A stretch of 37,377 nt of DNA. Source: Saccoglossus kowalevskii (lineage: Eukaryota > Hemichordata > Enteropneusta > Harrimaniidae). Location of the stretch: NCBI RefSeq assembly GCF_000003605.2, contig NW_003155736.1, forward strand, positions 99,567 to 136,943, written 5' to 3'. How positions within the stretch are numbered: the stretch's first letter is position 1; each line of letters begins with the position of its first letter. Positions 239 through 37,377 of this stretch are shown in pieces. The position numbers and the translations under genes were made by a program. The notes below the pieces were generated by a model that was not told where the DNA came from, searched no databases, and worked only from the letters and a program-made list of their open reading frames with translations.

Positions 239-431
<193 letters not shown>

Positions 432-623
432 GTACTTATCGATACATAATCACCAAATGACAATTTCTAGGGGTCACTAGTATTCGTAACACTTTTGACC
501 CTAAATACTATGTTGGGTCTGAGGTGGAAGTGATGTTATGGATCGCGGTAGACGATTAATTAAAATAGGGTGATCGTACAATTCTAAACACAATTTCACA
601 CAAAAAGGAAACTAGGTAGTAAT

Positions 624-2960: not shown

Positions 2961-2983
2961 GTGTTTGGATTTTATAAACAAAC
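2961..2983. promoter_or_regulatory. TATA-like element overlapping forkhead-type sites upstream of FoxL1
   Basis: The sequence GTGTTTGGATTTTATAAACA starts at 2961. It holds a TTTTATAAA core (TATA-box-like) and an ATAAACA at 2974-2980, which fits the forkhead consensus RTAAAYA. A TGTTTGG on the other side is a weaker inverted forkhead-like half. It lies about 425 bp before the FoxL1 ATG, so it could be a core promoter or an auto/cross-regulatory Fox site. No transcription start is proven. Confidence 0.25.
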
Positions 2984-3399
2984 TTTTCCCCGATGGCGGA
3001 TAGCGATTGGTGGAAACTCGTTCGACACGTGTTAATATGTCGTAATGTGCCATTGTCAAGACGTGTGGGTGGGCACTAGCACAAATCACTGTTTACCCAA
3101 TGTTGCAGATATACACTTGTGTGATGGCTCACCTAACCCTAAATACAACAACATTCAACAACTTTAAAACAAAGTGGCATACAAGACGCACGAACAACAC
3201 CGACTATCGGACAGTCCCCCAAGAGCCAGTTCGAGTCGACAGCTGTGAGTCAAGTATCCGTTGCTGCTCTGTCGGTCACCATTACCGGAGGAGAGGAACA
3301 GATCGGTTTTAGCAGGTGCGAAAACGTAACGGTGCCTTCCTGCTACGATACACCTGCTGTCAAGGTGATTGCTCAAAAAGGAACATTACTGTTAATGCC
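2984..3399 (+). other. Probable FoxL1 promoter-proximal region and 5' UTR
   Basis: In the FoxL1 frame an in-frame TAG stop at 3310-3312 precedes the gene, and the first in-frame ATG after it is at 3400. The sequence between is therefore 5' UTR or promoter. A TTTTAGCAG at 3307-3315 resembles a splice acceptor, so an upstream non-coding exon is possible. Short upstream ATGs in other frames could act as uORFs. None resembles a known protein. Confidence 0.4.
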
Positions 3400-4896
3400 A
3401 TGGCATCCATGGGCGGTCTGTACCCGGGACGCTTCGCCCCACACTCTCAGGGACATTTGAGCTACCTCACCCATCACCACACCGGTTGCTATTTCACGCA
3501 TAGAGACAGCACGTACAGTCCTCTTGCGCTAAATGTCCTGGAGCGCCGAGAGCAGCCACAGAAACCACCGTACTCTTACATCGCGCTGATCGCCATGGCT
3601 ATTCGCAGCGCTCCGGATCAGAAGACAACTTTGAACGGAATATATCAGTTTATTATGGAACGTTTCCCGTACTACCATGATAATAAGCAAGGGTGGCAGA
3701 ACTCGATACGTCACAACCTCAGCCTCAATGACTGTTTCGTCAAGGTTCCCAGAGAGAAAGGGAAGCCGGGAAAAGGAAATTACTGGTCACTGGCGCCCGA
3801 CTGTGAAGAGATGTTCGAAAACGGGAACTTTCGTCGTCGTAAGCGGCGACCAAAATCTTTTCTGAAAAGTGTTGAACGGGGGACTGAGAAAAGCACGAAA
3901 TGCGTAGATCAGCGGGCTGAACGCATCGCAAGTTGCGAAGCTAGCTCCGTGAAAGAAGATGCAGAATCCCCAACAACCATGCCAGGTGAGGAGAACATGA
4001 GCTTTTTAACACCTGGTACGATTACCGGTAACACTGACAAGAAGTCTTCCGAAATTGAGCACGATATTCTTGACGGTGATCGAGTGATTACCGATACGGA
4101 GTTAAACGATTGCAGTGGAGATGGTTCGTCTTCTGATTCCGAGGATGTATCCGACACTGAGAGCCACAAGGACGGATATCGCAACAAGACTGGGGAAGCC
4201 AAACACGGGCAGTACGTAACAGGACACGGACATTCGTTATCATCGACCCGCAACCAACATGTATGCCAGAGTAGTAGTATTTCCTTCACTATTGAAAATA
4301 TCATGAAACCGGAAAGAAGGGGTTACAATGACTACGATACGAAGGAATCTGAGAGGGGAAATTTTATTTCGGACAATAACCCTCACTTACTCAACCGGAC
4401 AATCAAAGTTGAGCCAGTTGATGAAGCCGGTACGATGTTTACCAGCAGGCAGGGGATTATCAACGGACAAACCAGCAACTGCGAAAAACTGATAAAATTA
4501 GCCAGCATAGCCGATAGAATTAACGCACCTGATAACTTGGACATTGGTAGAGTGTACCCTAGATTTGACGTGTCGAACGTTTCACGCCGAGAATGTTCGT
4601 ACCCAATCTCATCGAGGCCGCATTCACACCCCTCATCGTCCGCCCTACCCGCTCCAATGTCGCATACGGCGTATTCGAATTTGATGACGAGCACAGCGTA
4701 CCAACATCTGATCCCAATTAGGTATTCGCCGTACTCCCTACCATACTACTTCACCCAATATCCAACGCCATTAGATGTAGCGTCATTGCCTCATCCGAGT
4801 CCTACGGCACACATGGTTTCCCTCCCTTACGGGGTTAAGCCCTGGGCACTGAACGAAAGGTCGGCCAATGAAGGACGATTGCCTTGTTTATTATAG
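3400..4896 (+). CDS. FoxL1: Forkhead box transcription factor, FoxL1 class (single exon, 498 aa)
   Basis: A nuclear winged-helix DNA-binding transcription factor. The forkhead domain is at about residues 55-150, from [15 protein letters not shown] through recognition helix [10 protein letters not shown] (101-110) to a basic tail RRRKRRPKS (145-153) that probably serves as nuclear localisation signal. FoxL1-type features are [23 protein letters not shown] and [15 protein letters not shown]. FoxC proteins instead carry PRDDKKPGKG, and FoxF is quite different. After the domain come a Ser/Asp/Glu-rich stretch (238-258), an eh1-like motif FTIENIM (296-302), a SUMO-type motif IKVEP (335-339) and a Ser/Pro/Tyr-rich tail. 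The ATG at 3400 is the first in-frame Met after an upstream stop (TAG, 3310) and sits in a strong Kozak context (GCCATGG). The open frame could be extended upstream only with a non-ATG start at 3316. A single-exon structure is usual for this class. FoxC is the main alternative and is disfavoured. Confidence 0.93.
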
Positions 4897-5648
4897 TCCT
4901 CTAGTAAAACTTAACGGTGTTTATGACGGAACTGTGAGGACAAACACTGTGTTTGTAATATATTTCTAAATAATGTCAATTTCTGTTATTTCAAGATTTA
5001 TTGTAAAATACCACCACGGGTGGAAAGTGTCTGTGTATACTTGTAGACTACGTGTATACACATTTTTTTTAGTTTTAGATATTCAATATTACTGGGTTTT
5101 CTTGGCGGTAATTGCTGTTCTGAATGAATGGGTGGGGGGGGGGTAGGAAGTAGGGAACTTGAAGAAGAAATGGATGAGTGAACAAACGAACGAACGAACC
5201 ATCGAATGAACTTGATGAATGGGTTTAACTTGCGTTAACTAACCAAAATAATCACTTTTGATTGCCTTTTTGAATTTGGAATATAATTTTAGGCTGAACT
5301 ATTTCACAACTGTACACATATGAAGCTAACATGTACTTAGTTTTTATTATCAAAATGGTGAATACTGTACCTTGGATGTGAAAATTATGTTATGAATAGT
5401 ATTATCATTGCGATATCTACCTTTTTCAGAACATGCTTTTATAATATTTAAGTTGACGTCATGTCAGGCACGGAATTGGAAATATTGTTATAATTCTGAT
5501 TATGTTACAGGAACTCGGTCACGTGATACAAGTGAAACTTTCTGTAAGACATTGTCACCGAATTTGTTTTTCTCTTCAGTGAGGTCTGTACTTTTAAGTG
5601 AAACAAGAGAAATATATCATTGTCAAAGTTGGACTTGAACAAAATAAA
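4897..5648 (+). other. FoxL1: FoxL1 3' UTR with candidate poly(A) signal
   Basis: AATAAA at 5643-5648 is the first canonical poly(A) signal after the FoxL1 stop. It is followed by T/G-rich sequence of the kind that flanks cleavage sites, implying a 3' UTR of about 750 bases. The stretch includes a 10-base G run near 5136 and a short run of CGAA units near 5190. The open frame at 5408-5638 shows no family resemblance. Confidence 0.5.
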
Positions 5649-8127
5649 TAATTTGCAAAGTTTTTGTTAAAGTAATTTGTCTTGAGTGTTTATTAATTTA
5701 CGCTTCTTGTCAAGGATGATCAGCCTGAGCCTCGTTATGGGCGGATGGTGTTATTAGTCGGACTGCCCTACAACTGGTACATGATTGTTGAGTGGCGTCG
5801 ATTTGACACAATGTCAAGGTTGATTATTTATATTCCATCTTGAAAAAAATGTGACAGAAATGTTTTCCGCATGCGACAATAGTACTGCTGGAAGCCAACT
5901 TTGAATCTTCCAAACGATATGTCATTATTAAGCTAGAGAATATGGGAACCTGTCAACATTTCGAATATCGTTTCGGTTGACTTTTCTTTGGTACTGAGTA
6001 AAATCGAACTATATGACAATCAGTACATCATTGGGCGCTACTTTCATGACCATTAAAGATAACACATCCTGGTAATTTTGTTGGTATGACAGCATCACAA
6101 GCATACGTAATTGGGGGTATTTTAACGTGCATTTTGTTTCGAATGAGAAACATTTTACCAAAGCAGCTGAAACAGACAAGAGACTCGGAACTTGTGCCGA
6201 AATACCAATAAAATAAACTCGTGTTTTATACCAACGAAAGTACCAGGATGTGTTACCTTTAGAGGTCATAAAAGTCATACCTGAAAATGTATTTCGATGT
6301 TACATCGATTTATCACCAAACCTGGGAAAAAAGGGAGTCGCAAGAAAGTATCTAAGCCCAAACTTTCGTCGAATCCAGGAGAATAGTCACCCAATTTTCG
6401 ACTATATCCTTATTTCCATGAATAACAAAAATAATTCACTGATTTCGACATTTCTTTTTATGATTTGTCCAATTAATTCAATAGTAATTGCCAGCCACCG
6501 TGACTAGGTTATATTTATCAAAAGCAATTCCCAGTGGAAACTTATCTGCATGGACGTAAGCTTAATATATTTCATTTATCAAATTAAAAGTAATTTGTCT
6601 GTTACTGAGCCGAGAATACGAAGTGTTGTTAGCAGTCTTCCAAGACAATGTTTAATTTTCCCGTGAACAACAACACCCGTTTATTTGACTTCAATTCGAA
6701 GGAGTAGACAGGGAGGGTGGGAAGACTCAGCCATCATTGTTAGGCATACACAGGTAGAAGTGATCCCGGACGATCGCAACAAAACCGATATGAAGTTCTA
6801 CCTTTCGTGTAAATACCGATTTAACCGAACCCTGGAGTCAATAATATTGTTTCTGTGACCAGCGTTTATAAAAAAACAAACATCATCAACAATAAATAAT
6901 ATGCTCAGTATGTTGATTTCATCGGTGTTTATTAGTCCCTTCATCGGGGTAGCCTCCCTTTGTTAGACGCTTTGTCCGGTGGAGTCGTTGAATGGATGGG
7001 CTAGTTAAACAACAAGGTGGGGTTATGAAAAGGTGGATGCAGTTGACGGGCGTTAGGGAAAACATTATTAAGCATTCGCCTTTGTTCTCTTGAATTCCTT
7101 TTTTGATGTTTGGGCATTATGCTTAAGGGGAAATCACGGGGAAGAATGCCCACAAACAACAGTGCGTGTTCACGTTATAAGTAGGCAAGCCGAATGTACA
7201 CAACTTGGAGTTTGTTTGAGCAATGGTCATAGTTGACATAAATGGAAACATAAACTCGTATGTTTTACAATCGAAAAGAAGACGAATGTGGGAGACGGGA
7301 ACATTTCTACTCAGTGCCATAGTTTGAGAAAGCAGGACAGATACATTTTACAACTGACAGTCACACAATATTTGTATCAACACCATCACCAAATATGACG
7401 TAAAGTCACGTGGTAGAATTATGAAAATATGTAGTGTAACTTTCTTCAGCAGTTTCCCCGTACAGCTTCTGCCACTGTATTTCGCAGCAACCCTATTTTT
7501 TTTTTAAAGAAATCACGTGACAAATGAAACTAATCGATTTGTCAACAGCAAAGCTGCAAGTACAAACAAATGTAATTAAAAGCGGCAGTATAAACACTAA
7601 AGTTTGGAGACATCTTTCGCGAACAATGTGTACTAGTTTTTCGACGCCTGTCAATTAAGTCAGGAAATCGTACACCTGGGAAATCATTCATAGGTGAAGG
7701 CTAAAAAAGCTTAATTTGTAAAATGAGAATTTCGAAGTATCTCTCAGAAAACTTGCCGATCTTCACCAAGTTATGAACATGGGGTGCATTTTATTCATTT
7801 ATTCTTGCAATATTGGATAATCTGATTTCTGTGTGTATGGGAATTGCAAGTGTTGATATAGAACAGAAAAGACGAACAACTTCGGGTAGAGAAGATAAAT
7901 GGACGAACAAACATTGAACTACTTCACCATTCAAGTTCACCAATACCCAAGTGGTTACCACACTTTGTAAAACGCAGAGTTTAACTACTAGTATTGGCGA
8001 TCCTTAAAATGTGAAATTATGGGATAGTTGAAAGTTTGGCTTTCGGTAAGCAATGTTTAGTCTGTAATATGAACGGATGTAGATTTGCACAAAGTCTGTG
8101 TTTTTTTTCAATAAAATAAAATATCAA
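5649..8127. other. Intergenic sequence, no gene seen
   Basis: Unique AT-rich DNA downstream of FoxL1. Short open frames on either strand (up to about 90 codons) look like chance. TCACGTGA E-box palindromes at 5519-5526 (just to the left) and 7513-7520 are the only motifs I noted. Confidence 0.5.
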
Positions 8128-8195
8128 GGGAGTGTGTAAATGGCGAAAACCGAGTTACAAGGTTTTCTTGTTTGTTTCGCCATTTATAGACTCCC
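8128..8195. repeat. Imperfect inverted repeat (21-bp arms, 26-bp spacer)
   Basis: GGGAGTGTGTAAATGGCGAAA (8128-8148, 18 of 21 positions pairing) is the reverse complement of 8175-8195, apart from a central 3-base GTG/CTA difference. An inner alternative hairpin pairs GAAAACC (8145-8151) with GGTTTTC (8161-8167) around a 9-base loop. This could be a decayed MITE end pair or a transcribed stem-loop. No flanking duplication was identified. Confidence 0.6.
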
Positions 8196-10006
8196 ATACC
8201 CCCATATTTCATATTATAAAAAGTAACACAAAAAAATAAACAGAAGACTGTATGCAAGTCTAAAACAGATGATGGGGTGCTCCAGTAGTTCAATATAGAT
8301 GTTATTGCGCATGCGCGATATATGTGGCGTATGTATACAAATAAATAATATAAAACCGGTGATTGTTGTATTTTGTAGTAGATTAAAAATAAGTATATTT
8401 GGTTTTAGTAAAAATCTAAACTAGAAAATGAGGTAAACTCGTATATATCACGTGATGAAGTGATTGCATATGACGATAAATTAACTTTTGTTGAAAATAA
8501 CAAGCTATGGTGTACCTATAGAGGCGTTTTTCCGATTAAAACAAACGCGAGTTGTCCATTGCAAACAATTGAGCGTGTACTAGTACTAATAGGCTACGCT
8601 GGCCGCCAATAGTCGACCGGTACGTAAAGTCAACAGTGCATCTCACGCAACAGTTAAAATACATCGTATGCTTTGAAAATGAGCCACGACACATTTCTGG
8701 CTATGATCAAAGTGAAACAGCATACCGGATCCATCTGTGCCGGTATGCAATTCCACCCGGTTAATTCCAGGTGAATGACTAACGATATTAACTAGAAATT
8801 GAAATATATATTTTTATGCTTCGCATATGATTGATTTCATTTTCAGACCCATCTGCGGACAGTATTACCGAAATGTGACGTCATACTTGTGTTGCCTTAA
8901 CTACTAGTATATGAGTGTTCCACCACTATCATCGTGAAATTATGTAATCGACCCCAAAAATGGAGAGTTATTTAACATCGGAATCTGCCAATTTACATTG
9001 CCTCAATAGCCAGAAAAACTGTCGATCTTGTTTGACGAATATATTCTACTGAAGTTTAAAATAGACACCAATATAACGTAATGAAATATACACGTTGAAA
9101 TAATTTAAATTCAAGTTGATATGACAACTGTGTTATTAATTGTAGTCAATATTTCCGCCCACAGTATTTTTCTTAATTGCGTATTGTGGCAGACCTGTCA
9201 GTCAAATACATTTGAAGTACGGAGAACAAACGAATTCATCACAGCTTGTTTGGAAAAGGGGTGACCGTTTGCTTTTTTGACGGTACAAAGAAACAAGGTT
9301 TATTTTGCAAACGTTAGTTCTTTCCCCGTCCAGTTTACACAGTCTGTGCGTACAAATCCAATGGGAGTGTTTGGAAAAAAACAGTTGAGACCAACCGGTT
9401 TGTTGTATTTCCTCCTGTACATTTTATTGACCCGAGTTTGTATCCCATTCACACGCAATTGCTCGCCAATTGAATATTCGGGCTTTACAGTAGCATTTTG
9501 CAAACACTACAACGATGCGAAAATATAATTCCCAGTGTTGTTCTGCGACCAAGCGAGGAATGGCCCTTTCCGCTATGCTTCGCAACTAAAACCTAATGCG
9601 CTTGACGTGCCCGCTTATTATAAGACTCTCCCATGGTTGGATTGCAGAAAAGAAGAGGCTATTTTTCGGCGACTGTAACTCAAGTAACCCCGATCTAAGA
9701 TGTAAACAGCGACGGCAGGAAACGGTTCTTAAACCGCGGCCGTGGTTGATAGATTTGACTGTAAGACGAGAACCATTTCAGGAGTTGTTTCTAGAAGCAT
9801 ACTCCTTGCATTACAGTTTATACTTTTCTGTACTGTTCTACACCACGTCTCCTATTGTCCGCCATGTTTAATCTCAAGCAAACTTTTCAATGAGAACAAC
9901 TAATACTTTTCTCGTTTCTCTTCTATTTACCAACTTTACAGGTCACGCAGGCCAAATAAACGCCACCCCCCCTATTTCTATTTTGTCTTATCACAGAAAG
10001 TAAAAT
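8196..10006. other. Intergenic sequence, no gene seen
   Basis: A TGCGCATGCGC palindrome (NRF1-like) lies at 8306-8316, TCACGTGA at 8448-8455 and a CRE-type TGACGTCA near 8876. The open frames at 9277-9528 and 9596-9871 show no recognised domain and are considered chance. Confidence 0.45.
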
Positions 10007-10036
10007 CACAGTCCCTCAATCTATAGAGGGACTGTG
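10007..10036. repeat. Perfect 11-bp inverted repeat with 8-base loop, flanked by 7-bp direct repeats
   Basis: CACAGTCCCTC (10007-10017) pairs perfectly with GAGGGACTGTG (10026-10036). GTAAAAT occurs directly on both sides (10000-10006 and 10037-10043), imitating a target-site duplication around a 30-bp hairpin. The origin is unknown. Confidence 0.75.
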
Positions 10037-10043
10037 GTAAAAT

Positions 10044-11656
10044 TCATGTATTTGTGAAGGTGGTTTGCGTTATCTTCAGTGAGGTTTTCTTTTCCCCTAA
10101 GAGCTCTTGAGTTCCATACTACTCGGTTTTCATGGAGGCTAATTGTCGACGATCATTGTATTAAACCTATGCGGATCAATATCAGTGAAAGGTCGACTCA
10201 GTTGCGAATTATGCTAAACACAACGGAGACTGGAAAACATGTTTTCACACGGTTAGTGAGGTTCGCGGTTATCCATGATGACGAAGGTCTGTTTGTTTTA
10301 CTGCGATTTTCGCGTAGGTGTTTGTCCTGGCAAACCAATAATTGCTTTCAACGCCGATTGGATTACATTTCAAGAGCAGGCCTTTATATTTGCCATGGCA
10401 GCACGGGTGAAACAAAAGAACGTCTGCACTGTACGCTGGTCATGCCGACGTGTAGCATTATGAAATCAACTATGTTTAAATACTATTAATCAATATTTTA
10501 ATGCTTTATAGTGATACTATTTGTGTCTTTTCTTTAACTAGGGTGGGACAGTACAGGTGTGAAAAATTGGAGAATGGACCGGATAAGACACGGTTTATTA
10601 TTTAATGTACGTCACTGAAAAATGTGATTGGATATAATGGTACCTTCTTGCAATAAGTATATATCAATGTATTCGCGCCTGCGCCACGTGTGTCATCAGT
10701 AGTGAGACTTCAATGCGAGCCCCCCGAAAAGGTTGGATGTAGAGATCATAATTGGGCCCTCCTACACTTCGGAAGACTCTCTCCTAAGTTACGTGTACAT
10801 GGAAGAATGTAAAATTATGATTCGCAATTAAGCTGCCCGTAGGTATCACGTGACGATGTCTGGCGATGTTATTTACGGCTAGCGTTGCGTTGGTGCCAAT
10901 CAGGCTTACCCACCGTGTTTCTCCCGGAGTTTACGGAGTTAACCGTTCTTTGTAGCTGATTTTAATCTGATTAGAAACGTTTGTAGTAACATCCAAATTT
11001 GTTGCGAAAGCCAAATAAACAGAGAAGGAAAGTTTGGTACACAATTCCTCTCGAGTGTTTACATTTAGTTGAAAGGGCACAGGGGAAAACGAGCTCTTAG
11101 CCACGGAGCACTTATACGCCATTCTCACGAATATTACGCGGGCTTGAAGTGACCACACTCAGTGAATGGCACGCTCAATTCTTGTCCATTTCCAAATATT
11201 GCCTTATACAGTTTCCGCATACTCGAAGAGCTAAACGAAAAAACAACAACACGCATTTCACCATGACGCTTCAGAATCGGCGTACACCAGCCAACCGGAA
11301 AGACCCATCGTCTTCATAAAGAAAAAAAAGAACTGGGACTCACTCAAGCTTTCACCTCAACGAGTCTGCTTAGAAACATTTAGAGATATTTATTTGTCTT
11401 TGCCGGTATAATGTTATTAGGTTCCGCTGCTTTCGTAAATAGTGTTGAGCAATTTAATGGCTTTGTAGTCAGCCATCGACGTCACTGAAACTGGGAATCC
11501 TTTACATAGTGTATATGCCACGCTGTGGGTAATGGAAGATACCCCCATTAAAAGTGACAGTTTCGTTATGAAGATGAATATCACCGTGTGCGGTCCATAT
11601 GTCAGATGGTAGTCGGTACTTGAAATTAAAAAAAAGAAAGTCATGATGTAATGTTT
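10044..11656. other. Intergenic sequence, no gene seen
   Basis: Open frames at 10079-10489 (+), 10931-11158 (-) and 11417-11644 (-) have no recognisable family signature, and their residue composition looks like translated non-coding DNA. TCACGTGA occurs at 10846-10853. Confidence 0.45.

Positions 11657-11715
<59 letters not shown>
11657..11715. repeat. (ATC)n trinucleotide microsatellite running into an assembly gap
   Basis: About 20 uninterrupted ATC units reach the first N of the gap. The true length is unknown because the assembly stops inside or just after the repeat. Confidence 0.97.
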
Positions 11716-11765
11716 NNNNNNNNNNNNNNNNNNNNNNNNNNNNNNNNNNNNNNNNNNNNNNNNNN
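11716..11765. other. Assembly gap (50 N)
   Basis: Exactly 50 N follow the ATC microsatellite. A round number suggests a fixed-size placeholder rather than a measured length. The open frame crossing it is meaningless. Confidence 0.99.
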
Positions 11766-12716
11766 TATCAGTTTATAATGCTAGCATTGAGAGTGAAATA
11801 TTCGCAGTTCAGTGTCACTGCCATTCCGGTCACGGCTTACATGCACAGTCCAGCATCATATACGAGTGTTTTAATTCAACAAATCAGTGGAATAAATGCG
11901 GAAGCTGACGTCTGTTAGACAGTATAAACTTTCAAAGATCACCTTGCGTGAAAGCTATCGTGTTTTACTCTTATTCACTTCAATGGTTTTACACTTTATT
12001 AAAAAAAAAAGAGCTCAATGGGAAAACAACATAAAGAAATGAGCCCGTAAGACTATTACCCCCGAAGAATGCGATTAATTGGAAAGTTGGTCTACCCTAA
12101 AGGAACCAATAATGATGAACTGATATAAGGGGAGGGAGACGTTGAAACAAACTGAAATGCAAGTTAAACCACACAAACAAAGGAGTGAATTCCTGCTTTT
12201 GAAGGGATGTTTTGATTCACTTGGAATATAGGAACCAAACACGGGAGTCCGTTGTATGCTCGTTTGTCACTGTTATCGGCAATCAACTCGCCCCAATAAT
12301 CCGTTGATAAATCAGTATTGTATGAGTATAATAGTACCCCCAGGCAACATATGACCAGCCACTTCCCATTTTCTTCTCTTTTTTTTCAACAATAATTTGA
12401 TCCAGGCCACAAGTTTGGCTAGCCCGTAGTTATTGTTGTAAAAACACTTGTGTTGCCGATATCAAGTGATAATAACTTTTAATGTCATTGAACGCACCAC
12501 AACGCTGTGGTAAAACCTGCCCCGCAACTACTCGGAGGGTTATGGGTCACAGCCTTACTGCTCCGCTAAACTGCTTGATTTTCTACGGAGTTGGATAGAT
12601 CAGGGGGATGAAAGGGACTCCTTAGGTCGGGAGTATGGGATAAATAAACACTAAAAAGCGAGTCTGGCCTAATTGACAGCTGTCACAGTGTAGAGTCTTC
12701 CATTGACCATTTTCAG
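11766..12716. other. Intergenic sequence, no gene seen
   Basis: Unique sequence. No open frame of note and no repeat beyond short A and T runs. Confidence 0.5.
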
Positions 12717-12758
12717 TCGAACCATAGAGGTAAGAACATTTTTTACCTCCATGGTCGA
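12717..12758. repeat. Small imperfect hairpin
   Basis: TCGAACCATAGAGGTAA (12717-12733) pairs with TTACCTCCATGGTCGA (12743-12758) around a 9-base loop, with one bulged A and one A/G difference. It is short for an animal pre-miRNA, and no longer stem is visible. Confidence 0.55.
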
Positions 12759-15700
12759 ATATACACAAAGATACATATCCGAGACGCGTATCCGACAAAC
12801 TGAGTTAAATATATGTGGTTAGAATTTCGTATTTTACAAGTCGTTCTAGTCTAGCTATTCATAGAGGCACGAAGGGCCGACGAAATAATAAATAATAACC
12901 AGGATAAAGTAGTTCCAAATACAATTGCCCAACATTTGTTAAAAAGAAGGTAGACAGTAAGAATGTACTGGTATATATACCTCTACGCATGGTGATCGTA
13001 AACGTAACCATGGTAGTTTAAATTAACTGTAGGGTCATTGCCCGATACGTAACTTATCGTTAAGTAATAAATTTAAGCCAATAATTTGTATTACACTTTA
13101 CCACCATGATAGTACATGTCCCAGTCACTGGTTGCACACGCATATAACTTGAAACTGTAGCAGTAAACTAGTACAACGCGAGGTGGTGAAAACGTGTCAT
13201 CGCAAATTGAAAGCGACACAGTGTAGGCACATGTGAAACGTACAATTGCCGCCTTGCTAATTTATTTGTAGGTTTCATTACAAAATCAACGCTAGTATGT
13301 TTACAGAGTTTCCAAGTTACACGATAGCGAACATCGTTTATATTTTTTCTAGGGTTGTCTTCGCAATAATATCGCACATTGGGACAATAAGCAGATGATG
13401 AACAGAGATAAGACGTTGTACTAGGCGAGCGGGGTGCGACAGCTAATTATTCTAAATCCGGGCATCCGGTCTCAAAACATGCACAGCAGTCCCGGTGACG
13501 GGTGTTACAACTGGTGTTACTTACACACGCCACCAATCGGCGACGATTGTCGCGAAATTTTGCGATTACTTTAACCTCGTGTCACTTACTAAGTTAGCAT
13601 GTGCTCAGTGCTTCCAATTTTACGTAGCCATGGTAACTTGTGCCACGTGACGCAAAAACTTCGTCGTATCCTGTATTCCTTTGCAGGGGGGTGCGCGTCT
13701 GTAAATTCGAAATAATCTGTCTCCTTTCTTCATGAACCATTACTTCGGGTACCAATCGTTTCTTAACGTGAAATAAAACGCTACACAAACTGTTACAAGT
13801 AAAATTATATTTGACATATTTAGATTGTTCGTATGCCTTTTATTGAGAGATATAGTTCATATTTTAGATATCAACACTAACATAAAAATAATAACGTAAA
13901 ACGCGGTGTGTTACTACGTGTCATAGGAATCGAGAAATTCACCTCGTTTACATACGAGGACCGATGTCATCTCAATTAAAATCACGTGCTCAGCAACCTA
14001 AAACAAAACAAAAAAACAAAAAAAAAAAAAAAACTGACAACCGAATGAAGTGTCAATCACTTGGATGTGAATTTGAGTCAGACTAGGGGGTCAAATTCAA
14101 GTTTACTCGTCAGCGGATAGGACTTCCAACTGTTCGATCACGCTGGGGGCAACATGATCTGCCATTAAGGAGGAATGCTAGGATTTGTTTGTAGTATTCA
14201 TTGCAGAATGGGATCGAGATGAACGGCATGCTCAACAGAAGTGTGGTCAGATAGGCTAAATGACGACCAACCACCGGTATTGCTATGACAACAGCCATCG
14301 AGCGTCTTACATTACTTTTACTATCAAACGATGCAAGCGAGCTGAATTCTCACATGTAACGCGTTATTGCAGCCCCGGGGTATGATCGAAGGTCTAGTAA
14401 AGTGCTCCGTGCATGGTGGCTGAGTACTCGCTTCCATCTCCGCGCTCTTCGGATCTCGTCTATATCTTTGTTTATGTTTTCTATCTCGAAAGTTTTCAAG
14501 TGACTATTAAGTTTTATTTTAGCCAATTAAAATACAAATGTATTCGAGGCTAACGTTGATGAAGTACGTACAAATGAAAACACAATCATGTTTGCTTTGT
14601 TGATTTGTTTGTTAATGTGTGTGTTATGGATTGTGGAGTGGGTGTGGCACGCTGTGTCGATCAACCACGCGTGCGTTATGAAGATTTCCTCACGCTCATT
14701 GCTACCGCTGTACACACTAGTAACGCACACATACATTCGAACGACCGACATTTTTAGCGTCTATGATTCGATCTATTCAACGAGGACATTTAAAACAATT
14801 TGTTTCGAAAATGTTGCATAATTCGTGTAAGAAAAAAGTAAAAATAGACATTTTTGGAAGTATTTTCAACTTGAAGGGAACTTTTTACAACAAATATATG
14901 ATTCGTCAAATGATTTCCTAATAATTCGTGACACACAGAAGTACTTCTTCATAACTATAATTATTGTACCGTAACCAAACAAAAATGATAAGATCCTTTT
15001 ACTAACGGTAACTTGCTAAATAAAATTACAATTTAATAGAAAACTGACCCATGTTGGATTTTGTGGGCAAAAACATAAAATAAAGTCTGCTATGATAAAG
15101 GAAACGTGGCAACATGTTTTGATGGTAACCAACTACCTTAACATAGCGTTCGTTCGCGGCACCAACGTCGAAATAAAGAATATCGATATTGCTAACCATC
15201 TTTGGAACTGTTCCCGAGATCAGAATCAGGCACAGTGTGTAATTCTTTCATTTTGCCGAATTTATTTTGGGGTTTTTCCATGGTCCATACTGACACTGAC
15301 AGATTTGAATCCCGGACCATTTTACGAAGCTGAACGTCACTCGTGTTGCATAATAAACAATTTCACCACTTTTGTGACACTACAAAACACTATAAAATCT
15401 AATAATTTTTCCGAGCGAAATAATCCTTCAAATATATGACAAAAAGCAAATAAAAAGAGTGAACTTCCAAACTCGTTTCCATGGAAACAATGCAATTTCT
15501 CTATATCAATAAACTCTAATTTGGCGGCCATTTTGGATTGGAAATTGTCGGACAACAGACTGACAACTGGGGTTGATCAATATTTATTCTGTTCACGACA
15601 GTCTTGCAACCATGGAAGGCCGTCATCATCGGGACGACATTGAACCTGACATTGACACGTAATGTATTACCACGGGAAGTATTTATATCATTTGACTTGA

Positions 15701-16418
15701 TTTATTTCATAAACAATTTATTAGATTTCGGAAGTTTATAAACCATCCAGTCCCCCCGGCGTTTACTCCCGTTCTAAGTAAAGCGAATACCGTGAACTTT
15801 TCAAAGACCAATCAATGACTGTCACTGACTGCGAGGAACGCAGTAATCATTACCAATGTTTGTTATTACGTGAAATGATACGAACCATTTGTCAACGGGA
15901 ATCTATGAACGATACATGACGTGGGCAATCACGTGATGAACGCGATAAAAAACGGTAATACAGTATTCACAATTAATTTCGCAAGTTGTAAAATCAATAT
16001 ACGTCCGACTCCCTTTAAACTACATCGCGCCTTTTATTTGACAGCTTTCTAATATGGTAAAAAATACGCAAACATGGAAGATATATATTGTGACGTGATT
16101 ATTATCAATGTAAGATTGGTGGGATATAATTAAAAGTAGATCAAATAATACCCGGTGTAATATTCAAACATGGTCTATCTACTACACTATTCATTCTAAT
16201 TAATGCAAATTTTGCCCAGACTGCAGCACAGCATATTTTATAGTTTCACAACCGATTGATGAATAAACGAATACCATTTATCAGTTTATAGGGACAAATA
16301 AAACAACTCTGTAACATCAAAATCGGAAGAAGAGATTGAGTATAGTTTCAATAGCGCCGAGAATGCGGCAATAAAAAAAGTGTTATTGGTTTAATTTGCC
16401 GGCGTGGTAAAAAATAAT
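12759..16418. other. Intergenic sequence, no gene seen
   Basis: About 3.7 kb with only short, unrecognisable open frames (for example 14588-14821 and 15092-15439). Motifs of possible regulatory meaning are RFX X-box-like sequences at 13004-13017, 13624-13637 and 15475-15488, and TCACGTGA at 15929-15936. An A-rich tract lies near 14000-14033. Confidence 0.45.
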
Positions 16419-16841
16419 CTACAGCCATTCCCGCAATGTAATATCACGACAGTAGATTATATCGAACCGCGTTACGGTGAACTCTTGCCCCGAACTTTGA
16501 CTATACAGGTCCGCATTTCCCATTAAACGCAGTATAAGTGACACATCAACAATGCTGGCCACCCAGAAAGTGTACCGTCTCCAGGCAGATCGGTTGCCGG
16601 AAAACTTTAGAGCATTAGTACAACTAAATAGCGGACAGACCCCGTTGTCTCTCGACATCGCCCAAAGCACTATACAGTTCAGCGTTTTTGAGACAGAGAG
16701 AAGAAAAACAAGCCATATTGCATTAGAGGATGTGGAAGTGGGGGAGGAGTGTTTTATAAACAGATCACGAGTGAACGTTCTCATATAATCGCAAACGTGC
16801 GAAACGCTAATGCTTATACGTTTACAACAACAAACAAACAA
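16419..16841. other. Overlapping sense/antisense open frames, coding status unresolved
   Basis: A 140-codon frame on the - strand (16419-16841) fully contains a 78-codon frame on the + strand (16552-16788). Base composition is less AT-rich than the surroundings. I recognise no domain in either translation. The - frame is Cys/Ser-rich with hydrophobic patches, and the + frame is polar with several Gln and Glu residues. This could be a diverged exon, a conserved non-coding element or chance. I do not call a gene. Confidence 0.2.
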
Positions 16842-17548
16842 ACAAACAAGGGGTAAACCAGATATCAGCCTATGCTAGTATTTGAAGTTAGTTTCGCGTT
16901 ATGGAAGCACCATCTACTCCACTGGGCGAGGTCACGATTGCAATGACCCTTGAGTAAAGATATTGCTTCTCAGCTGGACAGCTGACAAATTGCTGAATGC
17001 AAACTTTCTGCGTGGATGTCACCTCCATCATAAACAACGCACAGAGTGTTAACGGATAGCATAAGCTTTAAACTGCGTTGTAGCAACAACAACAAAAATA
17101 TGATATGTGGTGGTTAGTCTCTTCAGCTCATTCGATAAAAGTGTGAATTTCGAGGTATCGTCTCAAAGTAGATGCAGCCACAACTTGGACGACCTTCGAC
17201 CTCTTTCCAGAATTTTAAAACTAGGCCATTTATAACATTTTTGAAAACAGAGTTGGGATTTAATAAACAAAAAGTACGAACGTGGCTCAAGTAACTCAGA
17301 GGTTTCAAATAATGTGTGTCTAAAACTAAGAAAAAAAGGCGTGGTTTCTATATACGTGTTTAGAAAACAATGCAGTACACTGCGAGCGGAGTGCATTCTA
17401 GTCAATAATATTGAAATCTACATGAATAGAAATCGACACGATACACATCAAAAACATTATGCGTTTTAAAAATGGCAGTCCTTATTCTCTCATTCAAATG
17501 CACCCAATTCAATGTATACGTATATCCCTGTAACATTTAATGAGAACA
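16842..17548. other. Intergenic sequence, no gene seen
   Basis: Contains a short CAAA run near 16829-16850. Otherwise unique, with chance open frames on the - strand only. Confidence 0.45.
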
Positions 17549-17639
17549 ACAAACAAACAAAACATGAAACGTGACCGAAAAAACGGTGCAACACGGGTTT
17601 AATAAACAAACAAAACATGACACGTGACTGAAAAAACGG
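17549..17639. repeat. Two-copy direct repeat, ~36-bp units about 54 bp apart
   Basis: Both copies contain AACAAACAAAACATGA, then ACGTGAC or ACGTGACT, then GAAAAAACGG. They end at 17586 and 17639, with a 17-base spacer between them. The copies differ at only a few positions. This is a local duplication with no gene content. Confidence 0.75.
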
Positions 17640-18399
17640 AAGAAGAAAATAATCCCACATCCAAATGTTATTTTTGCATCGATCGCATTTATATACCATA
17701 CACAACCCCTCGTCTTCTTTTTTTACATTTTCAGGAATGGATTATTTTCCTACCCGCATCTGTCTCTAACCTCATGTATATTTTCCCGAAATCATAAAAA
17801 TCAATAATCTGTCAAATTAATGGATGGGGCGTGGTGATGGCTTATTTGAGGATGGGATGTATATGTATTTTGTACACTTTTTAATTTTGCTGATACCGCG
17901 TTTGAGGGCTGTAGAGTTATGATTTATCGCAAACAATTGTCACTTTTGAAGCAATTGTTCTATGAACAATTATAATACACATTTGGAGTGACTGTTCAAC
18001 AATCGACACAACAAGCATATCCGTTGTTTTATGGAACGAATACTTACATCATGCACGAACACCATTTTTAGTCATAATCCTATTACATACACGTATTCAA
18101 CAACATGCACCATCAAACAGCAGCATTAGAAAATGATATGTTCTCATTTGTATTTTTATCTTCAAGGAAAAAGAAATACAATATTGAATGTTTTGTGTGT
18201 GAGTGTGTGTGTCTTTAAAATGTTCAAATATGTACTCAGTTTATTAATTGCCTACATTTCAGATTGCATCTAAGTCTGACACTGCCCGCGGCACTACATA
18301 TACCGGTTAATCGACTCACTGATGCGGCATTGCGTGTATCTATTGGCATAAAATAACATCCTCTCAGTCTCAGATTGAAAAGAAGGGGTGAAAAGTACT
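17640..18399. other. Intergenic sequence, no gene seen
   Basis: AT-rich unique sequence with a short GT-repeat near 18192-18212. No supportable feature otherwise. Confidence 0.5.
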
Positions 18400-19600
18400 C
18401 GATTTGGACATATATACTCATATTGATGTATATATGTATATATTACATTATATTGTCCCGCCACGCGACGTACCCACTTCTCCGTGTTTCTGTTTTTTGT
18501 TTAAATAAAAGCTGTACGTTTTAGAGCATAACACCGCGTTTAAGTATGTATTGGTAGAACCAGATGGGCGGATGAGCCCATAGGCGAATCACTACCTATA
18601 CCTAGTAGGTTAAGTAAGCGTATGTATTACGTTCGTGCTAGTGCAGTCTATACCTAGAGGGCGTAACTTAAGAGCATCCATAGTCTATTATTAGTGTGTC
18701 TATTAATAAAGGCAATACATATTATATCACATTTCCTAAATGGAAGAAGCTGTTTAAACGTTTGTGAAAAGGCAGACGTAATAGAAATCCCGATTGAATT
18801 GGGCAAGAGGGCGCTATTTTCGTATAAAAATAATGATGTATACGTGCAAAAACGATTAAAGCGATAGTATAGATAACGTTCTGTATTTTTATCATGGTTG
18901 ATATTATATATACATGTACGTACAATAATTCGATGCGCATGCGCGTGCGCACTAACACCTGCATAATTCATTATTGCTCCGAATATATACAGCCAAGCAA
19001 CACTTTCAGTTTACAACAAACCACACCACATTATTTTAATCATTGTACATTTCAAGCAAAAACATTTATAAACACGCTCAAAAATATTCAGTTATCCATA
19101 TTTTGTCAACTGATACAGCGTTTGTTATTACATTTAGTCGGTATCCAAACTATTTTAATTGAAATTAAATTCTACCAACCAGTGCAGAATCACCGCACAA
19201 TATTACAATATTTGTAAATTTTGCATCATAATATATCGTAGTGGAACGGAATTAATCATGCAAATCGAACAAAAAGGAAAGTGAAGATTGCCTAAAATTA
19301 TCTCATGGCTTTAAACAGTGTCACGCCAATTCAGGTTTTCATATTCATCGCGATTCATACTACGATTAATTGACTTAAAGCGGGAGGGTCGTCACCTGCG
19401 CACGCGCGAGGATCGAGTTCCAAGCGATAACACACGCTAAGAACGCGAAGGCTCATGGGTAGACGCTTGTTTGTAAACAATGACACACCTGACGCATGCG
19501 TAGTGGGTTGTCTAGTTTCTGAAGTTGAATACATGTACTAGTACTATACAGCATCATCACAAATATGAAAGTCCCAAATATAAAGCCGACCTGAGCACAG
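18400..19600. promoter_or_regulatory. CpG-richer patch with NRF1-like palindromes, candidate regulatory region
   Basis: TGCGCATGCGC at 18934-18944 and TGCGCACGCGC at 19397-19407 match the NRF1 consensus (YGCGCAYGCGC), and ACGCATGCGT occurs near 19493. AGAGGGCG cores (CTCF-like) occur at 18654-18664 and 18805-18815. An octamer ATGCAAAT is at 19258-19265. NRF1 sites typically mark CpG promoters in animals, so this could be the promoter of a transcript that is not otherwise visible. No supporting ORF was found; the 107-codon frame at 18894-19217 looks like chance. Confidence 0.25.
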
Positions 19601-20219
19601 TGACAATATAGAAAACGTTGATCCAGTCGAGTACACTTTCTAAACCATTTCTAATACGCTGATTCGGTAAAGTTTGAAAATACAAGTATACCATCCCTTG
19701 CAATTGTTATTTCAAAAACAGAAGGGATTAATTACATTCGTAAACCTTGGTGTTTCTGAACAAAGTAGTTACTGATACTACTTAATCGTTCTTACTGATA
19801 ATATAACCACAAGGAAAAACCAGATTCAACTGATGAAAGTACACATAGATGTTAATGCAAATTGATGATAAATTCAAAATTATTATAAAGATCCTGCCAA
19901 CAAAAGATTTATTCTGGTCAAGGGATGTTTATTGATATGGTTGTTATGGTAACAACAGGAGAAAAATGAGTGTAATTGAGACTTTTTCCAAATATCATTA
20001 AGCATGTTACTATAGCAACTTACACATCATCTGAAAACTTAGATATACTAAAGTGAATAAAGGTAATGCATATGCTTTACCAATCTTTGTCTAAGGGGTT
20101 ACCTGGCGGCCAATTTCGCTATTGACGTTTTTGAATATCAAACACTTTCAGTCACGCGAATGACCTGTGAATTGCACACGGGACGTTCATAACTCTGTAG
20201 GCCAGACGATCGCTCATTT
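19601..20219. other. Intergenic sequence with two RFX-like motifs
   Basis: GTTGTTATGGTAAC (19940-19953) and GTTACTATAGCAAC (20006-20019) are X-box-like and lie 66 bp apart. An octamer ATGCAAAT is at 19855-19862. No gene is seen. Confidence 0.4.
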
Positions 20220-20790
20220 GGTTTACCATCATTATTTTCACAACCAAATTACTACAGACATGATTCAGACGGTTGTAATTAGAAAACTAAAGCATGGAAA
20301 ATAAATGTCAAGAAATTGTAGAGAACATGCTAAAATCAATTATGCAAATTAGTTAATTCAAATGCACAGATGGATTCCTAACAATTATAAGTATTGAAAC
20401 TACACTAGCAGTATACATGCTCCCCAAGTTTCAAACATGCAAAACATGCTGCAAGTAATTAGATAGTATGTTAGCTAATTAAAATGCCCAAATTAAATCC
20501 ATTTTAAGGTTATACATTCAACTAAACACACATGCAGATATCAAGTTTTAATTAATCCATTTGTACAAATTGTTAGAAAATAAAAAAATATGACAAAAAC
20601 ACTTAATTAATGTGTAAATTAGCAAATTTAAATGCACAGATTAATTAGAGACAATCAACTGTACAAGTGGTATGCATGTACCAAGTTTCAATGCATTTGA
20701 GGGACCATTTATGATAGAGAAGCTGAAAGCATTTAAATAGCATGCAAATTAGCTAATTAATATGCACAGATGAATTAGAAACAAATATCA
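20220..20790. repeat. Diverged tandem repeat, ~130-140-bp units rich in octamer/TAATTA motifs
   Basis: Three to four imperfect units share a core reading AAATTAGCTAATTA, then AAATGCACAGAT, and further on CCAAGTTTCAA. Cores fall near 20342, 20470, 20615 and 20742. Units 1 and 4 keep an intact ATGCAAAT octamer (20342-20349 and 20742-20749). Divergence between units is substantial, so this is an old tandem array. Confidence 0.6.
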
Positions 20791-22714
20791 GGTATTGATC
20801 CATTCTAATCCAGCCTCTTGGAATATCAGTGGAACAAAAAAATAAAACACAAGCAGAAAGACAGATGGACAGCAGACATTGGGACAACATTACCTTCCCA
20901 AATAAAACAGTTATGACAAAAAACGCATCAAGTAAATCTAAAACAGAATTCAATCCCATGATGCATTTCACTATACTCAACAACCAAACATTACATGACA
21001 TCCAAAACTTTGTAATATTTTTTTTTTGAAGCATCATTGTCTTCATATACATGTATAATCCTGCCTTCTATTTTCAGGTTGCTATGGTTACCAACAAACA
21101 TGAACTAACACTATTGCAGAAACAAACAAACCTTATTAACCCCTTAAATTCTCAATCACTTTAATTCTATTAATAAATTAAAATACACTGACTTTATTAA
21201 CCCACCAGGTTCAAGGAAAACAAATATTTCAAGTTAAAAAAAAAAACTCATTTGTGACTAAAACAATCACCAAAAACTAATCACTACAGATCGGGCTTGG
21301 TTGGAGTTATTCAGTAATTTGAAAATGAAAATCAACAAAAATAGAAAATTTTTGACTCAGACATGATTTGAAATACAAGTAAATGAGTTTAACCAAGGCA
21401 CATATGCATCAGACATATACTCTTTAAACTTTTATCACACCAAAAATGTAAGTACATACGTAAACTATAACACCTTGGTAACTATAAATCTGAAAAATAG
21501 GCACACGCATAAAAAAAAAATGGCTGCAAATCTGCATTTTGGAGACAGAAATGGCAGTAAATCAGATCTTATCAAATCAGAACAACGTACTGCAGCGTCT
21601 GTAAACACAAACTACCAACAAAATCAGACATTTCTGATTTGCACACAAAGTACAATCGAACAAGCAATGATACCACAACAAACATTCAAACATTTAAGTC
21701 ACAAATATTTTGCATAATGTAAGATTAACCATCATAAATTGTAGAGCACCATCAATTTTGATATTATCATCATAAACACATGTATGTTACTTTCCAATAT
21801 TATGTTTTCCTGAGATTTATCTTGAATCCAGCAAGGAACATGGCAGTAGGATGAAAACAGACGCTGTGGGAAATGTACAATCTCTCAATAAATGTCAAGT
21901 ATGAACTTTTTTCAGCTAATGCCATCAAATAAACATCAAATAGTGACCACGGAAACCATAGACCCTACAAGGCACAGATACTGTGATTACCCACAACTAT
22001 TACTAACAAATAAATGTGCAATTACGGCATTTCCCCCCAAAAAATGTGAATTATACATCTTGCTGTATTTATAACTTTGTAATTGTAAGCTATATCTCTG
22101 ATTTCCTGAGTTTACAAAAAATTCAAATTGTCACTGAAAATTACAATTTCATAATTAACAAATAAATAACAAATTAAATATGCAGACATTTGATAAATAA
22201 GAGATGACTCCCATCATTGCATTAATTGCCTAGCTATGCTGCTAGTAATATCCCATTATTCATTTTGGCAGTTTGAAAGCAACATAATGGTGCAATCTCA
22301 GGTAACAGTTTATTTAATAACTTTCATTTATTTTGATGCAATTTAGTTTTTGCCATGTTAAATGTCATATGTGTTTGAACCAAAGACCATATCAACAAAT
22401 ACCTGTCTAAAATACCTGCGTATTCAAACCATTGTTTTGAGCACCTATTCTGAAATAAGTAAAAAATAAATACAGGTAACCATGGCACTCATTGGCATGG
22501 GCAAACATAGATAGATCCATAGATTGTGCGAAATACGCTTGTACATTTTACAGTGACATACACAAGAAATCAAGAAATTCACCCTCAACACCCCCCCACT
22601 TTTCTGACCCTTCTAATTTTACACATCACTCTTACCAGTACCCACTGTCTCACAACCTCTCACCTGTTTACATAAAATTTTTTACATTTTTTTTCACTAT
22701 CAAAGAAAAGAAGT
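20791..22714. other. Intergenic sequence between the tandem block and the first MITE
   Basis: AT-rich, with chance open frames only (for example 20829-21029, 21475-21717). X-box-like GTTGCTATGGTTAC is at 21078-21091 and GTAACCATGGCAC at 22476-22488. TTTATT at 22309-22314 and 22327-22332 would read AATAAA on the - strand and could be distant GMDS poly(A) signals. Confidence 0.4.
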
Positions 22715-22927
22715 TACTGTAAAATGACTAATTTTCCCTGGGTTTAATTTTGCTGATTTACCATTTCAGGCATAATCAGTGGGTTTTAAATTCACGATTT
22801 TATCATTTAGGTAATGTGTTCTATGCTAAATTTGACATATTCAGTGGGTTATTATAATTTAGTGCATTTTCCAGCCAGCGAAATAAGCAAAATTAAAACC
22901 CAGTGAATAATTAACCTTTTTACAGTA
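22715..22927. mobile_element. MITE copy 1 with CTGTAAAA terminal inverted repeats
   Basis: A 213-bp element (213 bp counting its flanking TA dinucleotides) starts TACTGTAAAATGACTAATTT and ends TTAACCTTTTTACAGTA. The inverted repeats extend inwards through CCCTGGGTTTAATTTTGC and GCAAAATTAAAACCCAGTG. The TA at each edge fits a TA target-site duplication, as in Tc1/mariner-derived MITEs. It has no coding capacity. It lies about 1 kb past the GMDS stop codon and could be inside a long 3' UTR. Confidence 0.8.
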
Positions 22928-23958
22928 CTAAATATTTAGGCTTTCAGAATATATATAAGATGGTGTGTACTTTAACGGAAATAAAAGTGTATTTTAAACA
23001 ATTCATCAGTCAAATAAAAAGTTTTAGAAGATACCGGTTCTATGGTGAAGACCGGCTCATAGTTAGATTGGTTTTACACGGGGTGTATTTGTTCTCAAAT
23101 TTGGTGATTTACAGACAGAAATTTGTCATTGTATTTTGGTGCATTTTAAATGGTCAAATGTTGTATTTAGATTTTACGTGATATCAATACAAAACAGGCA
23201 GATTCCTGTGTTCATACACACCGATTATAAGCAGTGCTGTCACTTGAACAAAATAATTCACCGAGTATTGTCCACTTCCATTTTGCATCAAAGTGTTAAA
23301 TCGGTTTTCGTCTCATGCCTGTATCCAATCTAGATTCAAGTCGATAGTGATTTCGAGATCACTTTGATCGTAGTCATGATTACACCGAGAAAAAGACATG
23401 ACCATTTTTAACCATATGTTGATATTGTCGCCATGGTGATCTGAGTATCACTATACAGTGATATTTACTTCTAATAAACATCACAAAACCTAAATTAGCA
23501 TGATTTAAATAATCACACTAAAAAATCAAACAAATAACAAACAAACAAAATTTCACCAATTACATGGACTCAATGAGCACACATGGAATGTAATTCAATG
23601 AAAGGAAGGCTAAATAAATAAATACAACAAATATCTACTCCCAAAAAAATGTTTCCCAATAAAATGTAAAATAAAATTTCTATTGTTAACTTAAAAAACG
23701 AATATTGGAAATTATTGATAAGTAGATAATTATTCTGAATGGATTTCATTTTTACAGTTCTGAGATGAAGACAATAACCAGTCTAGTTCCTCCCATCACC
23801 TCAACAAATGAATGTTACAAAAGAGAAAAATAAATCTGTTCTTAATATGCTGACCTCATATGCAAATACTGTCTGTACTGATAGTGGATGGAGCAGATAT
23901 TAAAAGAGGGTAAAATAAGCCAAAATAAATGAAACAACAGAATAAGTAATATATTTTT
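22928..23958 (-). other. GMDS: GMDS 3' flank / probable 3' UTR
   Basis: Immediately downstream (leftward) of the GMDS stop codon. I find no AATAAA on the - strand within this kilobase, so the cleavage site must use a variant signal or lie further left. Small + strand frames at 22960-23181 and 23136-23333 have no recognised homology. An octamer ATGCAAAT is at 23860-23867. Confidence 0.35.

Positions 23959-37377
<13,419 letters not shown>

What the first reader, a model, noticed from the sequence alone, without database searches (positions are those of the whole stretch)
3400..35401. FoxL1 and GMDS are adjacent and tail to tail, as expected for an undivided ancestral Fox cluster
Seen: FoxL1 on +, then ~19 kb without a gene, then GMDS on -. 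Known: in human, FOXQ1-FOXF2-FOXC1 sits beside GMDS with FOXC1 and GMDS convergent, while FOXF1-FOXC2-FOXL1 sits on another chromosome. Merging the two paralogous clusters predicts the order FoxQ1-FoxF-FoxC-FoxL1-GMDS. The window shows exactly the predicted FoxL1-GMDS junction and orientation. Inference: this lineage may keep the ancestral block, with GMDS as a bystander gene whose introns hold Fox enhancers.
Basis: partly seen in the sequence, partly recalled or inferred. Interest (0 to 1): 0.7.

Follow-up and report, generated by a model that had tools for sequence, protein, structure and literature searches.

The report
Ancestral Fox gene cluster beside GMDS
In this invertebrate genome three developmental control genes (FoxF, FoxC, FoxL1) lie in a row on one scaffold with the sugar enzyme gene GMDS facing them at the end, which is the arrangement expected before vertebrates duplicated the cluster and split it between two chromosomes.

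Summary
A single-exon FoxL1 gene lies at 3400-4896 (+) and the last six coding exons of GMDS at 35401-23959 (-), tail to tail, 19,062 bp apart. No Pfam family was found between them, though small-exon genes would be missed. The order is FoxF-FoxC-FoxL1-GMDS with the predicted orientations. FoxQ1 is on another scaffold (C1049), so its linkage is unresolved. Long N runs lie between the Fox genes, and a 50-N gap lies between FoxL1 and GMDS. That GMDS introns hold Fox enhancers is not shown: CpG content drops at about 19.8 kb and the GMDS side looks like one methylated transcription unit, with one CpG-retaining spot inside an intron. The cluster is known in bilaterians and FOXC1-GMDS in vertebrates; the FoxL1-GMDS junction that links the two was not in the paper listings I saw. 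Solid but expected; moderate interest.

The parts
3400..4896 (+). FoxL1 coding sequence, single exon, 498 aa (C4503:102966-104462)
   Evidence: ORF and Pfam forkhead; groups with human FOXL1
3559..3855 (+). Forkhead DNA-binding domain of FoxL1 (protein 54-152)
   Evidence: coordinates; Pfam, PDB FoxC2 match
4285..4305 (+). EH1-like Groucho-binding motif FTIENIM in FoxL1 (protein 296-302)
   Evidence: pattern match, coordinates; the EH1 pattern is recalled, and a paper on EH1 in Fox proteins was seen in a search listing only
4897..19800 (.). Interval without a detected gene and with normal CpG content, like the readable FoxF/FoxC surroundings; probable Fox-side regulatory DNA (inferred)
   Evidence: no Pfam match in six frames; CpG o/e 1.10 over 4897-19500
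11716..11765 (.). 50-N gap next to an (ATC)n array
19501..20400 (.). CpG boundary; best single change point 19,800
23959..24021 (-). GMDS last coding exon, with stop codon
24186..24254 (-). GMDS penultimate coding exon
24255..32418 (-). 8.2-kb GMDS intron, CpG-poor (o/e 0.44), with a 21/42-bp minisatellite at 26600-27218 and one CpG-retaining spot at 27701-28200
32419..32515 (-). GMDS coding exon
32793..32911 (-). GMDS coding exon
   Evidence: Pfam PF16363
33943..34070 (-). GMDS coding exon
   Evidence: Pfam; PDB
35297..35401 (-). GMDS coding exon, the most 5' one found in the window
   Evidence: Pfam

Best explanation
The window is the 3' end of a FoxF-FoxC-FoxL1 cluster with GMDS as its tail-to-tail neighbour, and this is the ancestral arrangement. 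Shown: FoxF (+), FoxC (+), FoxL1 (+) and the 3' half of GMDS (-) on one scaffold, in that order. Inferred: before the vertebrate genome duplications the same row, with FoxQ1 in front, existed once. After duplication one copy kept Q1-F-C-[L1 lost]-GMDS (human chromosome 6) and the other kept [Q1 lost]-F-C-L1-[GMDS lost] (human chromosome 16). How it works (inferred): the Fox genes are regulators set in long gene-poor, CpG-normal DNA that probably carries shared enhancers, and selection against breaking gene-enhancer spacing keeps the row together. GMDS is a gene-body-methylated enzyme gene at the edge of that domain. The CpG boundary at about 19.8 kb suggests that the Fox-side landscape ends some 4 kb before the GMDS stop codon, so in this animal GMDS need not house Fox enhancers.
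For: Forkhead domains on C4503 at 23501, 73667 and 103125, all +. Class assignments by tree: FoxF 100/97, FoxC 99/97, FoxL1 91/94. Relatives of FoxD, FoxE, FoxG, FoxI, FoxL2, FoxA and FoxB lie on other contigs. GMDS exons and orientation. Human order FOXQ1, FOXF2, FOXC1, GMDS and FOXF1, FLJ12998, FOXC2, FOXL1 as listed in PMC1634998 (passages). Whole or partial cluster reported in hemichordate, scorpion, tardigrade, insects and, for FoxC-FoxL1 only, an annelid (passages of PMC4077281, PMC8918179, PMC9539403). CpG o/e 1.10 against 0.38-0.44; it is normal again at C4503:151117-161423 (1.16).
Against: Of 49,074 bases between the FoxF and FoxC frames 16,991 read N, and of 28,075 between FoxC and FoxL1 20,723 read N; genes could hide there, and no reads check the joins. 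FoxQ1 is on C1049, not C4503. The 5' half of GMDS was not found by a protein search of the genome (no positive control), so an intact GMDS is not proved. In the 17-row tree the recalled Drosophila FoxL1 row did not join the window gene and human FOXL1; I left that row out of the 30-row tree. The 30-row data do not reject FoxL1 with FoxC as one group (p 0.12, 13.75 log units worse). The annelid case in PMC9539403 shows that the cluster can break up while expression is kept. No second invertebrate was compared.
Confidence: 0.82

Rival explanations
1. Genomic regulatory block in the strict sense: GMDS stays next to FoxL1 because its introns contain Fox enhancers.
For: In human two conserved elements studied as FOXC1 candidates lie between GMDS exons 7 and 8, and their zebrafish counterparts stay downstream of foxc1a although gmds is absent there (passages of PMC9597995). 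Enhancers were validated in the FOXC1-GMDS interval and in a GMDS intron (passages of PMC4701781). The 8.2-kb intron here holds one CpG-retaining spot at 27701-28200.
Against: The GMDS side in the window is CpG-poor almost throughout, while the 15 kb without a detected gene on the Fox side is not. PMC4701781 considers the intronic element CE4 more likely to regulate GMDS (passage). Conserved noncoding elements could not be tested here.
Confidence: 0.3
2. Coincidence or recent event: FoxL1 and GMDS became neighbours in this lineage alone, and the match to human FOXC1-GMDS is chance.
For: Only one invertebrate genome was examined. The literature listings seen showed no other invertebrate case.
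Confidence: 0.08
3. Assembly artefact: the FoxL1 part and the GMDS part were joined wrongly at the 50-N gap (window 11716-11765).
For: A gap next to an (ATC)n microsatellite lies between the two genes.
Against: CpG content is similar on both sides of the gap; the change lies about 8 kb further on. A wrong join would have to create the predicted neighbour and orientation by accident.
Confidence: 0.05

Closest known systems
Human 6p25 cluster FOXQ1-FOXF2-FOXC1-GMDS
   Same: Fox genes in the same order with GMDS at the end of the row (order from the Results passages of PMC1634998; the convergent orientation is recalled)
   Different: Here FoxL1 lies between FoxC and GMDS; the human list has no Fox gene in that place. 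FoxQ1 is not shown to be linked here.
Human 16q24 cluster FOXF1-FOXC2-FOXL1
   Same: FoxF, FoxC, FoxL1 in the same order (PMC1634998 passages)
   Different: GMDS is not in the human list for this copy, and FLJ12998 lies between FOXF1 and FOXC2 there.
Hemichordate (Saccoglossus kowalevskii) foxQ1-foxF-foxC-foxL1 linkage
   Same: foxC and foxL1 on one scaffold, foxF linked in one of two assemblies, foxQ1 only by genome walking (PMC4077281 passages); a very similar state of evidence
   Different: No GMDS neighbour is mentioned in the passages seen; its additional figure was not available.
Scorpion (Centruroides sculpturatus) Q1-F-C-L1 cluster
   Same: Complete four-gene cluster in a protostome (PMC8918179 passages)
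   Different: No GMDS neighbour is mentioned in the passages seen.

Membership tests
FoxL1 class | Forkhead domain grouping with FOXL1 rather than FoxC, FoxL2 or others | tested here: met
   82 identical positions with human FOXL1, next best FOXC1 76. Groups: 92/89 for window plus human FOXL1 in 17 rows; 91/94 in 30 rows, where the long-branch array row also falls in the group.
FoxL1 class | Single-exon coding sequence (clade I Fox genes) | tested here: met
   one open frame 3400-4896; rule as given in PMC9539403, which also lists exceptions
FoxL1 class | EH1-like repressor motif C-terminal of the forkhead domain | tested here: met
   FTIENIM at residue 296; the expectation is recalled
GMDS (GDP-mannose 4,6-dehydratase) | GDP_Man_Dehyd domain, best match human GMDS | tested here: met
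   130 of 191 aligned residues (human sequence recalled); Pfam and PDB matches
GMDS (GDP-mannose 4,6-dehydratase) | Complete enzyme with N-terminal NAD-binding half | tested here: inconclusive
   not found in C4503:136944-176000, where 28,750 bases read N; genome search with the N half found nothing, without a positive control
Bilaterian FoxQ1-FoxF-FoxC-FoxL1 cluster | FoxF, FoxC and FoxL1 on one scaffold in that order | tested here: met
Bilaterian FoxQ1-FoxF-FoxC-FoxL1 cluster | Same transcriptional orientation | tested here: met
   all three on +; that this defines the cluster is recalled from the human arrangement
Bilaterian FoxQ1-FoxF-FoxC-FoxL1 cluster | FoxQ1 linked in front of FoxF | tested here: inconclusive
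   FoxQ1 is at C1049:72683-73948 (-), 73 kb from that contig's left end; C4503 ends 23 kb left of FoxF, of which 1-18731 reads N
Bilaterian FoxQ1-FoxF-FoxC-FoxL1 cluster | No unrelated genes between the members | tested here: inconclusive
   no gene-like frame of 100 aa or more noticed by eye in the readable parts, but 16,991 and 20,723 bases read N; this part was not scanned with Pfam
Genomic regulatory block with bystander gene | Enhancers of the developmental gene inside bystander introns | not testable with these tools
   no relatives and no chromatin data; CpG profile only

The most novel reading that the evidence does not exclude
[quoted passage not shown] The FoxL1-GMDS junction kept here is then the missing link that explains why FOXC1 and not FOXL1 touches GMDS in human. 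It would polarise the cluster and tell which duplicate lost what.
Probability: 0.75. Interest if true: 0.5.

Novelty: new member of a known kind. Interest (0 to 1): 0.45.

Why it matters
The Fox cluster is one of the few non-Hox clusters traced across bilaterians, and why it is kept is debated (PMC9539403 and PMC8918179, passages). A fixed non-Fox neighbour in an invertebrate gives an outside anchor. It predicts which genes were lost after the vertebrate duplications, and it allows a test of whether the FOXC1-GMDS regulatory neighbourhood, studied for eye and brain malformation (PMC9597995, PMC4701781, passages), is older than vertebrates or arose after FoxL1 was lost from that copy.

Tried and rejected
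Considered and rejected: FoxC identity of the window gene (the best PDB hit is FoxC2, but no FoxL1 is named among its 46 hits, and a separate FoxC gene lies at C4503:73 kb); an extra gene hidden between FoxL1 and GMDS (no Pfam match, with limited power for small exons); the hit on C2851 as the missing GMDS half (identity to GMDS only 28-40% in the pieces; it looks like UXS1, a recalled name). Two weak Pfam matches in the large GMDS intron (PF04129, E 1.5e-4, below its cut-off; PF20678, E 6.7e-7, above its cut-off) fall inside the 26600-27218 minisatellite and are taken as chance matches of repetitive sequence.

Led nowhere: viral-contig search with FoxL1 found no relative. The COX4 search of the genome rang nowhere, controls included, so it says nothing. 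Searches meant to find EXOC2 (PF15469), IRF (PF00605), homeobox genes (PF00046) and a specific GMD model (TIGR01472) in the own genome were sent repeatedly and never answered, so the FoxQ1 side and the phylum stay open. Irimia 2012 is not held. The phylum can only be narrowed by Fox content, using passages of PMC9539403: FoxAB-like gene present (class lost in vertebrates); FoxI and FoxQ1 present (both lost in molluscs, or at least Conchifera); FoxE, FoxI and FoxAB present (lost in panarthropods). A hemichordate, echinoderm, cephalochordate, brachiopod, phoronid or nemertean would fit; this is inference. The names FoxAB and FoxQ2 for rows without a reference in the tree are by eye.

Full report
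Observation. The window carries a single-exon FoxL1 gene at 3400-4896 on the + strand and the last six coding exons of GMDS on the - strand between 35401 and 23959. The five introns between them have GT and AG borders. The spliced 192-residue piece matches human GMDS (recalled) at 130 of 191 aligned positions, and Pfam and PDB matches of the larger exons agree. The distance between the two coding sequences is 19,062 bp. Twelve of 12 frame pieces covering it show no Pfam family at E 0.01. The same method recovered 3 of 6 known GMDS exons (the rest missed), so it would miss genes built of very short exons. The left 3.4 kb is empty in six frames, as is the + strand opposite GMDS. On the - strand of 23950-30650 one frame was empty and two gave one weak match each inside a minisatellite, which I take as chance.

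Identity of the forkhead gene. Against 16 recalled reference domains human FOXL1 is the best match (82 identities; FOXC1 76), and the window gene pairs with it at 92/89, while the recalled Drosophila FoxL1 row stays outside. In a tree of 30 domains, 18 from this genome and 12 recalled, the window gene, FOXL1 and the long-branch array row group at 91/94; FoxC and FoxF of this genome sit with their namesakes at 99/97 and 100/97, and FoxQ1 with its namesake and a diverged second copy at 97/94. Holding the window gene and FOXL1 together is not rejected (p 0.535); holding it with FoxC is 13.75 log units worse but not rejected (p 0.12). A separate FoxC gene on the same scaffold settles the matter in practice.

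The cluster. The own-genome search places the window at C4503:99567-136943 and finds two more forkhead domains on that scaffold, at 23501 and 73667, both +. Their open frames are FoxF (23213-24379, stop to stop) and FoxC (73457-74887, stop to stop). Caution is due: the fetched part of C4503 (1-176000) holds N runs at 1-18731, 32627-47995, 58495-60116, 78844-99566, 111282-111331, 136944-151116 and 161424-176000. Of 49,074 bases between the FoxF and FoxC frames 16,991 read N; of 28,075 between FoxC and FoxL1 20,723 read N. The FoxL1-GMDS interval crosses only the 50-N gap. Whether the N runs are assembly gaps or withheld stretches I cannot tell.

FoxQ1. The best FoxQ1 is at C1049:72683-73948 on the - strand, 73 kb from that scaffold's left end, and ends in an EH1-like sequence, FSVENLI (by eye). 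Turned round, C1049 could precede C4503 with FoxQ1 in the predicted orientation, but nothing here proves it. A second, divergent FoxQ1-like gene lies at C1049:88566-89672 (+). Only 60001-70000, 72500-84500 and 88000-90000 of C1049 were read.

GMDS upstream half. It was not found in C4503:136944-176000, where 28,750 bases read N, nor by a genome search with a recalled human N-terminal half (no control). CpG content is normal again at 151117-161423 (1.16), so the GMDS unit probably ends inside the unread 136944-151116; this is inference.

CpG landscape. CpG observed/expected is 1.16, 1.10 and 1.10 over the left flank, the FoxL1 coding sequence and 4897-19500, and 0.43, 0.44 and 0.38 over the GMDS 3' flank, the 8.2-kb intron and 32520-37377, with the best single break at 19,800. 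The readable 5-kb bins around FoxF and FoxC lie at 0.97-1.29. In mosaic-methylated invertebrate genomes CpG loss marks methylated gene bodies (established knowledge, recalled). So the GMDS transcription unit probably reaches to about 20 kb and the Fox landscape ends there. Within the low domain only 20001-20400, 23101-23500 and 27701-28200 pass my mark of at least 6 CpG and o/e above 0.9 per 300 bp; the last lies in the large intron and is the one intronic candidate. In human, two conserved candidate elements do lie in a GMDS intron, and their zebrafish counterparts persist by foxc1a without gmds (PMC9597995 passages), while PMC4701781 leans towards GMDS as the target of its intronic element CE4 (passage).

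What is known. PMC1634998 (passages) lists human FOXQ1, FOXF2, FOXC1, GMDS and FOXF1, FLJ12998, FOXC2, FOXL1 in its Results (its Background passage names the genes of the two chromosomes differently) and treats them as duplicates of one cluster, single in amphioxus. PMC4077281 and PMC8918179 (passages) report whole or partial clusters in hemichordate, scorpion, tardigrade and insects; PMC9539403 (passages) finds only FoxC-FoxL1 tightly linked in an annelid. Searches of the held library for FoxL1 with GMDS (6 of 6 papers listed), GMDS, FoxC and synteny (4 of 4), two of GMDS, forkhead, microsynteny (20 of 121), three of six cluster terms (20 of 37), GMDS, bystander and genomic regulatory block (1 of 1), and microsynteny, bilaterian and GMDS (1 of 1) showed no title or abstract on GMDS beside a Fox gene outside vertebrates. 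Subscription papers and supplements were not searched, and most listed papers were not opened.

Verdict. The finding is real and its core reading is well supported. It is a new instance of a known cluster plus a junction that ties the two vertebrate copies together. It is satisfying rather than surprising.

Noticed in passing
own genome, contigs C3072, C112, C4502, C2214, C3756, C434 (samples L032-L035): 87 of the 119 forkhead matches in the genome lie on six contigs of at most about 58 kb where length was seen (27, 23, 12, 9, 9 and 7 matches; a few are two pieces of one copy, lengths of four contigs). In the one stretch compared (L033) the unit is about 1.94 kb and 93-95% identical; most sampled copies are open frames for a divergent forkhead protein with an EH1-like FSIAKIL (by eye), and some matches carry stops. 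A very large tandem expansion of a forkhead transcription factor, possibly more surprising than the finding itself. In the tree it sits by FoxL1 on a long branch that is not to be trusted.
   Followed up: partly
C1049:88566-89672 (+): A second, strongly diverged FoxQ1-like gene about 15 kb from FoxQ1.
   Followed up: no
window 19501-20400: Sharp CpG depletion boundary about 4 kb beyond the GMDS stop codon; a short repeat at 19375-19503 with copies near FoxQ1 on C1049 lies at its edge.
   Followed up: partly
window 26600-27218: Minisatellite of 21/42-bp units in the large GMDS intron, open in frame as a repetitive peptide, which draws two weak Pfam matches.
   Followed up: partly
window 22715-22927, 24692-24896, 32179-32370: Short elements of about 200 bp with TACTGTAAAA-type inverted ends; the first and third have 81-89% identical copies in other fetched loci, so probably a MITE family.
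   Followed up: partly
window 34619-35175: About 557-bp element with 21-nt inverted ends (TATTAAGGTAGAAGCCTA) in a GMDS intron.
   Followed up: no
window 6040-6275: Inverted repeat with 48-nt arms, 88% complementary, in the FoxL1-GMDS interval.
   Followed up: no
window 239-431 and 611-948: Perfect (TAAA)n array and a 54/114-bp tandem repeat upstream of FoxL1.
   Followed up: no
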